From: Bradyrhizobium canariense
Lineage (GTDB): Bacteria > Pseudomonadota > Alphaproteobacteria > Rhizobiales > Xanthobacteraceae
Length of the DNA: 64,000 nucleotides
NCBI RefSeq assembly: GCF_900105125.1
Contig: NZ_LT629750.1
Location: forward strand, 7,653,001-7,717,000
Direction: 5' to 3'
Every line of letters starts with the position of its first letter. Position 1 is the stretch's first letter. Both the position numbers and the translations under genes were made by a program. This document shows positions 57,835 through 61,092 of this stretch, piece after piece. The notes under the pieces are model-generated. The model did not search any database. It was not told where the DNA came from and saw only the letters and a program-made list of their open reading frames with translations.

Positions 57835-57909
57835 ATGTGAATGCGTAAACGATCCTTCGTCGATTTTCCTGAGAAGCAGGAGGTCAAGCGCCTTCGCGTG
57901 TGGGAAGCC

Positions 57910-58410
57910 CTACGAAGCGCGGTTAACCGCACCCGTATCAATACCATTCAAGCGAATTTGCATGGCTTGCGCAGACACTCCAAAAAGCATCGCAAGCCGT
58001 GTAAGGTCGCGTTCCCGGACTCGCCAAACTTTTACAAGCCGAACTGGCATCAAGATATCGGCGGCCATTCTGTTTGCTTGAACTTCATAGTGATCGGACA
58101 ACTGCGCGCTGCGATACATTGTATCGTCAACAACGCCAGTTTCGATTAGGTCTCGGTGAAGTATGAAGTGGGCCAATTCATGAGCAAACGTGAACCGTCG
58201 CCGGTTAGGATGTTCACTCGAATTTACATAAATCGCGAAACCCGATGGACCACCTTTAACTTTATCTCGCATTATCTGGCCGGACACCCCTGAACCCAAA
58301 GGCATCTGGTAGACCCTTACGCCAAGAGCGTGCGCGATCCCATCGAGATCAATAGGCGGTCTCTGTTGATACCTTGCAACGACTCCAAGTGGGCTTTCAT
58401 TCATTTCCAT
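57910..58410 (-). CDS. ImmA/IrrE-family metallopeptidase
   Basis: 166 aa. The zinc motif is His77-Glu78-x-x-His81 (FTFAHELAHFILHRD), and the downstream helix EVQANRMAADILMP supplies the third ligand (Glu). In phage and ICE systems ImmA cleaves an XRE repressor to switch on genes; in Deinococcus IrrE/PprI cleaves DdrO. No XRE gene is fused or directly adjacent. The nearest repressor is the S24 gene at 60386. Start 58410 overlaps the TM-protein stop by 14 bases. It is the last gene of the leftward module. Confidence 0.9.
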   Translation of the reverse strand: MEMNESPLGVVARYQQRPPIDLDGIAHALGVRVYQMPLGSGVSGQIMRDKVKGGPSGFAIYVNSSEHPNRRRFTFAHELAHFILHRDLIETGVVDDTMYRSAQLSDHYEVQANRMAADILMPVRLVKVWRVRERDLTRLAMLFGVSAQAMQIRLNGIDTGAVNRAS

Positions 58411-58855
58411 TTGGTGTCTCTGACTGATCTAACGACTCTACAATTTCAGCAGCTTCGTTCGGAGTCGTTTCTGCCGGTTTACCTTCCAAGACGGTTCTGG
58501 CCGCCACCGATTCTGCAACTTCTCTCGCAATTTTCGTCGCTAGCCTCTCTGCGGTCCCGCTTGCGGTGCTAGTCGCCACCCTCTCTGCAGTAGCGCGAGC
58601 CTCCTCCCGAAGTGCGGTGAAGCCCCAAATAGCAGCAACTGCAACAAAAACCGTTAAAGCAGCAATGATAACAGCAAGTGCTGTGAGTACTATAGAAATA
58701 AAATCTTTATATTCAATAGCTTGGGTCTGCACTAATCCCCCACGGGAGACAATATAAAGGACGAACAACGCAAATACTGCGTTGAGAAACAGAATTAGCG
58801 CCACCTGCAATCGGGATGATCTCCCCCTACGTCGCTCGCCACTCAAATCGGTCAT
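58397..58855 (-). CDS. Two-TM protein with cytoplasmic coiled coil
   Basis: 152 aa. A basic N-terminus (GERRRGRSSR) precedes two membrane helices (about residues 18-38 and 50-77). The rest is Ala/Glu/Arg-rich with heptad-like spacing, AERVATSTASGTAERLATKI then AREVAESVAAR, suggesting a coiled coil, and an acidic tail. I do not recognise a named family. The local sequence is AT-richer than the surrounding genome. It is positioned between the Ntn hydrolase and the ImmA-like gene and overlaps both the micro-ORF and ImmA, so it is a probable membrane anchor of the module. Confidence 0.8.
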   Translation of the reverse strand: MTDLSGERRRGRSSRLQVALILFLNAVFALFVLYIVSRGGLVQTQAIEYKDFISIVLTALAVIIAALTVFVAVAAIWGFTALREEARATAERVATSTASGTAERLATKIAREVAESVAARTVLEGKPAETTPNEAAEIVESLDQSETPNGNE

Positions 58856-58935
58856 TTCGACTTTTTCTTTGCCCCCGCGGTGGGCTTGGAGCGCCCGTCA
58901 CCCACCTTCATTTCCCCGTTAGGTGTCGGACTCAT
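58852..58935 (-). CDS. Possible 27-aa basic micro-ORF between Ntn hydrolase and TM protein
   Basis: ATG at 58935 reads MSPTPNGEMKVGDGRSKPTA and ends GAKKKSK, with its TGA overlapping the TM-protein ATG (ATGA). It overlaps the last 17 bases of the hydrolase gene. Inner ATG at 58911 would give 19 aa. No good ribosome site is seen, so the only support is the tight overlap at both ends and the lack of other content in this 63-base gap. Confidence 0.35.
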   Translation of the reverse strand: MSPTPNGEMKVGDGRSKPTAGAKKKSK

Positions 58936-59845
58936 CTGGAATAGCGCTCTCATCTGATTTCGCGTCTCGCCCAGATTCTCGCTCGTTTTTCTCGTCGACT
59001 TGCATCAACTTTTTCGAAAGAGTGGGGAGATCCTTGTCCAATTGCTCTATTAACTCGGCGCCCATACCGCTTAGTTTCCCAAGATACTCCGTATAAAGGT
59101 CGTGGATTCTTTTATCCACATTGGGATCGATTGCTTCGATCTTATCTTTGAATACAAGATGTATATCTGTCCGAGAGCCGACGCCGGGTGCGATTTCGGC
59201 AGCTTTTTTTGCGGCGAAAGCTACCGCTAATGAATAAGCATAGTAGGTTGAATTCGAGTATCTGGCTTGCATAAGTCGGGACTTGGCGTGCCACGCTCCT
59301 ATGCCAATAGCACCAAAACCAACGTCATCAAGACAATGTGCGGACCCTTGGCTGTCCACCAGGTAGATATGGGCGTTATTCCCATCTGCTCCGACTATCA
59401 ACGCTTCTACATCTGGCCCCTGATGGTTTTGAAGCTGACTCGTGATGTTGCTCACGAAATCGGCGGACATTTCCTTTTGCTCAGCGAGAAACGAATCGGA
59501 GTTCAGTCCGAGGGGAGCGAGGTAGATATCCTCTGCTTGCTTGCGCTTAATAGCTTGGATGGATTGGCCGTAGTTCTGCGCAATACTGTAAGGGGATGGA
59601 TTTCTTATCCCCCGCATTTTGAGATGAGTATCATGAATTGCTTGGGAATGCGTTGAGTAGTCCCCCGCGATCATGAGGAGCGCTCGATCAGACATGAACG
59701 CTACTTTGAGCTGGGCTGGTTCATATTGAACGTCGCCGGCAGTAATCATCCGGTCGGATAATGCAATCGCGACCAATCCGACTCGGGGCGGCTCACCAAC
59801 TTGAGCATAATTCCATCTGAATAACGTCGCTATGCAGACAGTCAC
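58919..59845 (-). CDS. Proteasome-like Ntn hydrolase
   Basis: 308 aa from a GTG at 59845 with GGGAG about nine bases upstream. After Met removal the protein starts TVCIATLF, placing Thr at position 1 as in proteasome beta subunits and HslV. Asp30 (IALSDRMITAGD) and Lys46 (AQLKVAFM) are 16 residues apart, the same spacing as Asp17-Lys33 in the proteasome. AGD follows at 59-61 and GIGAWHAKS fits the GSG region. A charged helical tail (about residues 230-308) is extra. A longer start at 59959 would add a 38-residue basic leader overlapping the 91-aa gene. Substrate and role are unknown. Confidence 0.82.
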   Translation of the reverse strand: MTVCIATLFRWNYAQVGEPPRVGLVAIALSDRMITAGDVQYEPAQLKVAFMSDRALLMIAGDYSTHSQAIHDTHLKMRGIRNPSPYSIAQNYGQSIQAIKRKQAEDIYLAPLGLNSDSFLAEQKEMSADFVSNITSQLQNHQGPDVEALIVGADGNNAHIYLVDSQGSAHCLDDVGFGAIGIGAWHAKSRLMQARYSNSTYYAYSLAVAFAAKKAAEIAPGVGSRTDIHLVFKDKIEAIDPNVDKRIHDLYTEYLGKLSGMGAELIEQLDKDLPTLSKKLMQVDEKNERESGRDAKSDESAIPDESDT

Positions 59846-59955
59846 GGGCACCTTCTCCCTGAATCTTGGGTTGAAAATACCACAATATTCAACTTTTGGG
59901 AATTTGCGAAAGTTGCGGCGCGTGCGTTTCACCTTTGTCAGCAAACCGACGCCCA

Positions 59956-60231
59956 TCACACCGTCTCATGCTTGCGCAGGTCGCGGGCATGATCGAACCG
60001 GCTGGCCTGCAGATCGACTTCTGTCGCCGAAATGTCGGGAAGCGCGGCCTCGGCGAGAATCTCGGCGGTAATATCGTCGACCGCAGAATCGGCGATCTCG
60101 TGGATGAAGCTGATATTCTTGTATTCGCCGGACGCCACGCGCGAGATCACTTCGCGCCTCGTGATTTCGGGGTCGACGATCGCTTCGCGTCCGCGCCGCC
60201 CGTAATCGATCATCACGACGAAATATTGCAA
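59956..60231 (-). CDS. Hypothetical 91-aa protein, first gene of the repressor-flanked module
   Basis: Acidic protein starting MQYFVVMIDYGRRGREAIVD and ending with a charged ARDLRKHETV. No membrane segment or signal is seen and I do not recognise the family. Two copies of the 15-bp operator-like motif lie 54-99 bases upstream of its start, so it and the genes downstream are probably under the S24 repressor. The stop abuts the upstream alternative starts of the Ntn hydrolase (59956-59959). It may be an older resident gene next to a later-acquired hydrolase module. Confidence 0.75.
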   Translation of the reverse strand: MQYFVVMIDYGRRGREAIVDPEITRREVISRVASGEYKNISFIHEIADSAVDDITAEILAEAALPDISATEVDLQASRFDHARDLRKHETV

Positions 60232-60284
60232 AGGCGAGGGTCTTTCCAGGGCGGGATACCGTTTTTTGTCTCGGCAGCAAGTAT

Positions 60285-60299
60285 TTCCGAAAATCAGAA
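60285..60299. promoter_or_regulatory. Operator-like site O1
   Basis: TTCCGA-AAA-TCAGAA, a 15-base near-palindrome 54 bases before the 91-aa gene start. It is one of five copies near the S24 repressor gene. Confidence 0.7.
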
Positions 60300-60315
60300 G
60301 TAAGTCAAGGATAAT

Positions 60316-60330
60316 TTCGGAAAATCGGAA
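60316..60330. promoter_or_regulatory. Operator-like site O2
   Basis: TTCGGA-AAA-TCGGAA, centred 31 bases from O1, upstream of the 91-aa gene and just past the repressor stop side. Left arm differs from the commoner TTCCGA. Confidence 0.65.
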
Positions 60331-60385
60331 AAACTGCGAGGGCGACGACTCAAGCCCGGCAGCCCTAGAGAATCACCCCGCGTGA

Positions 60386-61009
60386 TCATTTCGCGCCGCT
60401 CTTGACCGCCTTGCGGGTGCGGGCCGCGGCCCTGGCGCGGAGGCGCTCGATCTGGCCCCTTGGCAGGGTGACGCAGATCTCGCCGATCCACTCCAGCTTC
60501 ACCCCGATGATCGGCTTGGCGTTGAAGCTGGTGAGGTTGACCACGGTCGTGGACTTTCCGCGCTCGATGGTTTTGAGGTAGCGCTCGCCGGTCTTCAGCC
60601 GCACCGCGGCCTCTTCGCCATAGAAGCTCGAGATCGGGTGGCGCTGCTCGCGGTACACCACGATGATGTCGCCATTCTCGTATTTCGGCAGCATGGAATC
60701 GCCTGATACTTCGAATGCGATGGTCTCCTCGGCGATCGGGAACGGCAGCTCGACTTCGCCAAGACCTTCCGGCGGCACCTGCTCGTGCTCCGGTTCGATC
60801 GAGGCGCCGGCGCCGACGCGGCCCATGATCGGCACCGAGTTCAGTTCGAGATAGTCGATGATCGGAGCGATCTCCGACGCCTTGATCAGGCGAATGCCCG
60901 AGAGGATTTCTGAGACCGCGCCCGGGCGCACGCCCATGGCGGTGGCGAGGCCGCCCTTGGTCTTGCCCGGCTTTTGCAGCCCACGTTCGATCAACCTGAT
61001 GTCTAGCAT
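60386..61009 (-). CDS. S24-family (LexA/CI-like) transcriptional repressor
   Basis: 207 aa. An N-terminal helix-turn-helix is suggested by GGLATAMGVRPGAVSEILSG. The C-terminal S24 domain has the catalytic Ser in VSGDSMLPKYENGD and the Lys in ERYLKTIERG, the Ser-Lys pair used for self-cleavage in LexA and phage CI proteins. The tail is very basic (RARAAARTRKAVKSGAK). It sits among five copies of a 15-bp near-palindrome, three of them before its own start, so it probably represses itself, the divergent gcrA operon and the leftward module. RecA-stimulated cleavage is possible but not shown. Confidence 0.9.
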   Translation of the reverse strand: MLDIRLIERGLQKPGKTKGGLATAMGVRPGAVSEILSGIRLIKASEIAPIIDYLELNSVPIMGRVGAGASIEPEHEQVPPEGLGEVELPFPIAEETIAFEVSGDSMLPKYENGDIIVVYREQRHPISSFYGEEAAVRLKTGERYLKTIERGKSTTVVNLTSFNAKPIIGVKLEWIGEICVTLPRGQIERLRARAAARTRKAVKSGAK

Positions 61010-61019
61010 ATGCCATGCT

Positions 61020-61034
61020 TTCCGAATTTCAGAA
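61020..61034. promoter_or_regulatory. Operator-like site O3
   Basis: TTCCGA-ATT-TCAGAA, starting 11 bases upstream of the repressor start, in the divergent region shared with gcrA. Confidence 0.75.
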
Positions 61035-61044
61035 ATGATAGCAA

Positions 61045-61059
61045 TTCCGATTATCAGAA
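61045..61059. promoter_or_regulatory. Operator-like site O4
   Basis: TTCCGA-TTA-TCAGAA, centred 25 bases from O3. Confidence 0.75.
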
Positions 61060-61077
61060 ATCAAGCTTGACTTTGAT

Positions 61078-61092
61078 TTCGGAATATCAGAA
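61078..61092. promoter_or_regulatory. Operator-like site O5
   Basis: TTCGGA-ATA-TCAGAA, centred 33 bases from O4 and about 46 bases before the gcrA-like start. Left arm is inverted at one position relative to O3/O4. Confidence 0.72.

What the first reader, a model, noticed from the sequence alone, without database searches (positions are those of the whole stretch)
57910..60231. Uncharacterised module: proteasome-like Ntn hydrolase, two-TM coiled-coil protein and ImmA/IrrE metallopeptidase
Two unrelated proteases, one with an N-terminal-nucleophile proteasome-like signature and one HExxH type, are coupled to a membrane protein in one AT-rich leftward operon. The combination lies beside an S24 repressor and operator-like sites, as in phage or defence islands. 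I do not know a described system with this composition. A regulated proteolytic response to a stress or phage signal is an inference.
Basis: partly seen in the sequence, partly recalled or inferred. Interest (0 to 1): 0.85.

Follow-up and report, generated by a model that had tools for sequence, protein, structure and literature searches.

The report
Transposon-type cargo with two proteases
A soil bacterium's chromosome carries a small foreign gene cassette for a proteasome-like protease, a membrane protein and a zinc protease; relatives of its parts travel inside jumping genes, so it may be a mobile protease switch, perhaps against phages, but no function has been tested.

Summary

TM and ImmA are a conserved pair: in the 7 of 397 genomes of the order where the TM profile hit, ImmA follows at once. 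In four other genomes the pair lies inside complete IS1595 transposons with inverted repeats and 8-bp duplications. Proteasome-like genes are passengers of four transposons, one in this genome and one holding only a distant relative. Only the window holds all three, and there transposase, repeats and duplication were not found. The S24 repressor is resident.

Best reading: a transposon-derived conflict cassette in which TM-ImmA, elsewhere next to Beta (as named in gop-beta-cII defence), works with a proteasome-like protease. Function is inferred; a chance meeting of two passengers is not excluded.

The parts
58919..59845 (-). Ntn: proteasome-like threonine protease, 308 aa, predicted mature N-terminus Thr2
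58397..58855 (-). TM: 152-aa membrane protein, two hydrophobic helices then a long helical tail, IEYKDFI motif
   Evidence: Hydrophobic stretches 18-36 and 46-64; low-confidence model with helices 5-39 and 49-124 (pLDDT 68.3); 41% identity to the TM of G156
57910..58410 (-). ImmA: ImmA/IrrE (M78) zinc endopeptidase, 166 aa, no HTH domain
   Evidence: PF06114 1.1e-18; H77, E78, H81 and E109 invariant in 11 relatives; PADLOC capP 5.4e-29; IrrE 7.1e-12 and CapP 1.6e-10 by profile
57835..59955 (.). Inserted segment between two convergent resident stop codons, about 2.1 kb; exact ends uncertain by some 15 bases
   Evidence: Flanks aligned to G136 (57815 / 59965) and G167 (57821 / 59952) with 57 and 287 bases between them there; no inverted repeat or duplication found

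Best explanation
A horizontally acquired conflict cassette made of transposon-type passenger genes. SHOWN: relatives of both halves (TM-ImmA; Ntn) occur as passengers of complete IS1595- or IS1-type transposons; here they stand together, co-oriented and equally AT-rich, at a site empty in two relatives; catalytic residues of both proteases are kept. INFERRED: TM is a membrane hairpin whose cytosolic stalk holds or presents ImmA. On a signal, probably phage or invading DNA, ImmA cleaves a target and so sets free an effector. In sister operons the third gene is Beta, named after a component of a tested anti-phage system. Here the proteasome-like threonine protease takes that slot and degrades phage or host proteins, stopping infection or growth. 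Trigger, substrates and any defence phenotype are unknown.
For: Empty site in two relatives; shared composition of the three genes, GC 0.494-0.501. TM followed at once by ImmA in 7 of 7 genomes with a TM hit, plus G156 and G031. TM-ImmA inside complete IS1595 transposons in four genomes; G156 and G031 have a single IS1595 match each in the assembly and it is this one. Ntn inside complete transposons in L037, L035, L036 and, as a distant relative, L103. Third gene is Beta in G493, G319, G506, G307 and a Neorhizobium plasmid, there with cll and Drt2 matches. Beta and Abi systems with ImmA: PMC9122126 and PMC9519451, passages. Fold and active sites.
Against: Ntn next to TM-ImmA is seen once. By tblastn at 1e-3 none of 10 other Ntn loci holds TM or ImmA, and none of 13 ImmA loci holds Ntn. 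Ntn and TM-ImmA ride on different transposase groups, about 30% alike. No defence gene was found in 5 neighbouring proteins by PADLOC. Ser129 of the proteasome is not evident in the window (IGIG, my reading). No expression or phenotype data.
Confidence: 0.42

Rival explanations
1. Two unrelated passengers met by chance: a TM-ImmA pair and an Ntn gene, from different transposons, left side by side after the transposases were lost. They share a neighbourhood, not a function.
For: Single instance; no second Ntn-TM-ImmA locus in the samples searched. Transposases of the two kinds of carrier differ, about 30% identity.
Against: Same strand, 63 bases apart, no terminator-like site called between them on that strand, same GC, one added segment in the empty-site comparison. 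But passengers of this kind share low GC elsewhere too, so composition proves little.
Confidence: 0.33
2. A selfish addiction cassette: the genes only helped their transposon persist (toxin-antitoxin-like) and give the host no phage protection.
For: The genome's IS1595 copy lies beside a HigB-HigA pair, and the G513 element holds a SocA/Panacea-type antitoxin domain.
Against: No toxin recognised among the three proteins; no Pfam toxin hit above cut-off.
Confidence: 0.14
3. A stress operon run by the S24 repressor.
For: S24 sites lie upstream of resident ORF 59956-60231 (seen by eye); no terminator-like site on the minus strand between that ORF and Ntn, so read-through is possible.
Against: S24 locus present without the module in G136 and G167; right flank in 189 of 195 genomes whereas Ntn is in 1 of 195.
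Confidence: 0.06

Closest known systems
Proteasome-like homologues of bacteria (Fuchs, Alva, Lupas 2021, PMC8665760; parts 1-5 of 6 read), nearest by architecture PHI
   Same: Proteasome-beta core, Thr/Asp/Lys/Gly centre, no propeptide, helical insertion after the first two helices, long C-terminal helix
   Different: No sequence comparison with PHI was possible; that paper reports no context hinting at function, whereas this family sits in transposons and beside TM-ImmA
gop-beta-cII anti-phage system of satellite P4 (PMC9122126, passages)
   Same: Sister TM-ImmA operons carry a Beta protein, and one a cll match
   Different: The window has no Beta, Gop or cII; TM-ImmA and Ntn stand instead
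PD-lambda-2 (PMC9519451, passages)
   Same: Has an ImmA-type peptidase and a third part related to a P4 antitoxin; window ImmA matches PD-Lambda-2_B at 4.3e-6 and a sister Beta matches PD-Lambda-2_C at 1.2e-7
   Different: No HigB toxin, no HTH on ImmA, no Beta in the window
IS1595-family transposons with passenger genes, e.g. ISNha5 (PMC11891212, PMC8101967, passages)
   Same: Relatives of all three genes lie in such elements with 8-bp duplications
   Different: No transposase or ends at the window locus
CapP-CapH of CBASS
   Same: capP is the best PADLOC score of the window ImmA (5.4e-29)
   Different: Partner is a membrane protein, not an HTH repressor; no cyclase recognised beside it

Membership tests
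Proteasome-like Ntn family | Proteasome-beta fold | tested here: met
Proteasome-like Ntn family | Thr1, Asp17, Lys33, Gly47 equivalents | tested here: met
   T2, D31, K47, G61; spacings 16 and 14 as in the proteasome, the first gap 13 longer (numbering from PMC8665760)
Proteasome-like Ntn family | Pfam PF00227 / TIGR03634 profile match | tested here: inconclusive
   8 of 11 members match PF00227, not the window protein; 7 of 11 match TIGR03634, the window at 7.2e-6, below cut-off
PHI subfamily | Helical insertion after H1/H2, none between H3 and H4 | tested here: met
   Helices 116-125 and 128-139 extra; 8 residues between 184-193 and 202-216
PHI subfamily | Clusters with PHI sequences | not testable with these tools
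   Reference sequences not on hand
ImmA/IrrE (M78) | PF06114 above cut-off and HExxH with a downstream Glu | tested here: met
   67.7 bits against 22; H77 E78 H81 E109
ImmA-ImmR / CapP-CapH type switch | Partner HTH repressor encoded in the operon | tested here: not met
   Partners are TM and Ntn; the S24 gene is resident
gop-beta-cII / PD-lambda-2 | Beta component in the operon | tested here: not met
   No Beta hit among the window's three proteins
IS1595-type transposon with passengers | Transposase, inverted repeats, 8-bp duplication at this locus | tested here: not met
   No transposase ORF in the insert; scans negative; the genome's only PF12762 match is at C1:4784785
Anti-phage system | Protects against phage | not testable with these tools
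   Needs plating assays

The most novel reading that the evidence does not exclude
Rare proteasome-like threonine proteases are mobile defence effectors: carried as passengers by IS1595/IS1-type transposons and, here, joined in one operon with a membrane-anchored ImmA switch, giving an anti-phage system that works by proteolysis alone, without ATPase or nuclease.
Probability: 0.25. Interest if true: 0.85.

Novelty: new variant of a known kind. Interest (0 to 1): 0.6.

Why it matters
The 2021 survey of proteasome homologues found no genomic context that hints at a function for these orphan families. Here one such family is seen in complete transposons and in one cassette with a membrane protein and a zinc protease. 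That links an orphan proteasome relative to mobile, conflict-type cargo and offers a three-gene system that can be tested by phage plating and active-site mutants. It also defines a TM-ImmA pair shared by IS1595 transposons and by Beta operons, which makes the role of ImmA in them testable.

Tried and rejected
Rejected: the S24 repressor as part of the module. Rejected: an insert bounded by any transposon end found elsewhere; matches near its ends are no better than elsewhere in the 64 kb.

Negative or weak: tblastn of Ntn against 72,556 plasmid and 50,697 phage records gave no match; TM gave none in plasmids or viral contigs. The genome-contig scan, limited to two peptide patterns, gave 4 relatives. 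Divergent Ntn members are missed: the order search did not report the second Ntn of G349 (L103), and tblastn with the window protein does not find it; it rests on PF00227 at 1.3e-7. A first test for inverted repeats used intervals that missed the ends of L064, L065 and L037; for L035 two of 200 shuffles scored as high, and its arms for L035 and L036 are longer than the repeat-plus-duplication fit, so those ends are less sure. L038 stayed undelimited. The same scan found no ends for the HigB-HigA element L098 or for L101. TM kinship of G319 and G307 rests on the profile (6.8e-11, 8.1e-5), not on tblastn; the plasmid TM proteins (L070, L073) on alignment and hydropathy only. Of 18 ImmA matches I mapped 7; TM stands beside 3 of these. 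L071 (Aeromonas) has ImmA-Beta with no TM recognised; L074 has an HTH gene before ImmA. The ImmA tree places the window row weakly (47/89). A weak ZorA hit of one TM relative (8e-5) is not used. HslV and Anbu are not in the 50 VIA rows shown and are not excluded. The paper search listed only unrelated work.

Full report
WHAT IS THERE. Three leftward genes stand between 57910 and 59845. ImmA (166 aa) hits PF06114 at 1.1e-18. TM (152 aa) has two hydrophobic stretches. Ntn (308 aa) begins at a GTG at 59843-59845 behind AGGGAGAAGG, so the mature protein would begin at Thr2. TM and ImmA overlap by 14 bases; Ntn and TM are 63 bases apart. GC is 0.494, 0.497 and 0.501 for Ntn, TM and ImmA, and GC3 0.515, 0.425 and 0.473; four resident genes nearby have GC 0.594-0.651 and GC3 0.75-0.86 (all).

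THE INSERTION. In 195 same-genus genomes the right flank matched in 189 and the left flank in 184 (the match lists are cut). In G136 and G167 both flanks lie together on one contig. There the left gene (PF21135 oxidoreductase with a SAF domain) is separated by 57 and 287 bases from the homologue of ORF 59956-60231 and the S24 repressor, without the module (the G167 gap holds a run of N). So about 2.1 kb stands extra here between two convergent stop codons. The S24 gene and the GcrA-family gene (PF07750 5.1e-32) are residents. Ntn was found in 1 of 195 same-genus genomes, 3 of 397 of the order, 1 of 21 relatives and 1 of 398 of the phylum, G000 counted each time.

THE TM-ImmA PAIR. A TM profile hit 7 of 397 genomes of the order, in 7 genera, and in all 7, the window included, ImmA follows at once. 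Two more came from the ImmA search of 190 same-genus genomes, 16 of which matched: G156 (ImmA 57%, TM 41% identity) and G031. Of these nine loci, four lie in IS1595 transposons, four have Beta as third gene, and the window has Ntn. Beta in G493, G506 and G307 matches PF14350 at 1.9e-45, 2.1e-46 and 4.2e-69, in G319 PADLOC beta at 1.4e-45. A Neorhizobium plasmid has a TM-like protein, ImmA, Beta (9.9e-41), a neighbour matching cll (4e-33) and a reverse transcriptase matching Drt2 (1.5e-134). I take PADLOC's beta and cll as the parts of gop-beta-cII, which protects against lambda and P1 (PMC9122126, passages). PD-lambda-2, another tested system, joins an ImmA-type peptidase with a part related to a P4 antitoxin (PMC9519451, passages). 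In the ImmA tree the six Beta-linked rows group together (96/96); the window row is nearest to G513 (58% identity) and G156 by path, with weak support.

PASSENGERS OF TRANSPOSONS. In G156, G031, G513 and G309 TM-ImmA lies between inverted repeats of 24-26 nt (three mismatches in G513, none in the others) with exact 8-bp duplications: L064 1657-5632, L065 3461-8159, L092 4206-8308, L096 4418-9222. Their transposases hit PF12762, are 48-78% identical to each other and at most 32% to the other IS1595 transposases compared. G156 and G031 show one PF12762 match each in the assembly, and it is this one (both are draft assemblies). Ntn lies inside L037 7794-10952, in this genome: 3159 bp, 17-nt identical repeats, duplication GACGCTTG, transposase PF03400 at 7.2e-7. 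It also lies inside IS1595-type elements L036 7999-10182 and L035 8681-10903, with repeats matching at 14 and 12 of 18, and a distant relative lies inside L103 3862-6085 (13 of 18); each has an exact 8-bp duplication, and five shuffles of each right side gave no such pair. L103 was found through the IS1595 search, so it is no independent draw. Of the other six Ntn loci, L038 has an IS1-type transposase beside Ntn (56% identical to that of L037) but was not delimited; L008 has an IS1595 transposase about 3 kb away; L007 starts with the gene; L039 (phage portal protein) and L040 lie among phage-like genes; L041 is a fragment. Passenger genes of IS1595 elements are known in general (ISNha5; PMC11891212, passages).

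WHAT IT PROBABLY DOES. The window is the one place seen where Ntn and TM-ImmA stand together: none of 10 other Ntn loci has TM or ImmA, and none of 13 ImmA loci has Ntn, by tblastn at 1e-3. No transposase or transposon end is left there. Two readings remain close. Either it is one operon in which TM-ImmA is a membrane-tethered protease switch and Ntn the effector in the slot that Beta holds elsewhere (0.42), or two passengers lie side by side (0.33). The first is favoured by strand, spacing, composition and the fixed TM-ImmA pair with a changing third gene; the second by the single instance and by different carriers. Defence is inferred from the Beta operons, the Drt2 neighbour and the kind of cargo; no phenotype is known.

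NOVELTY. Paper searches showed no description of Ntn with ImmA and a membrane protein or of proteasome-like genes as transposon passengers; most subscription papers are not held. Known folds and a known kind of vehicle in a new combination: a new variant of a known kind.

Noticed in passing
L037:7237-7785: A 549-bp stretch with the same 15-nt inverted ends abuts the Ntn transposon of this genome and holds no transposase.
   Followed up: partly
L064:1657-5632 and L065:3461-8159: The G156 and G031 elements sit at the same chromosomal place beside a dprA-like gene (named by eye), in opposite orientation.
   Followed up: no
L098:3832-5631: The only IS1595 match of this genome lies beside a HigB-HigA pair; no element ends found.
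   Followed up: partly
L070:1941-6302: Neorhizobium plasmid: Drt2-like reverse transcriptase, TM-like protein, unannotated ImmA, Beta and cll-like gene in a row.
   Followed up: partly
L099:3914-5991 and L100:4867-6841: Two more IS1595-type elements with fitted ends and passenger ORFs not compared with any family library.
   Followed up: no
L008:4870-6807: Two tandem divergent Ntn genes on one viral contig.
   Followed up: no
window 60280-61090: Repeated TTTCNGAA-type palindromes flank the S24 gene and also occur in G136 and G167 (seen by eye).
   Followed up: no
L035:8172-8903: A PemK/MazF-type toxin gene (PF02452 5.3e-12) overlaps the left end of the Ntn transposon of G349.
   Followed up: no
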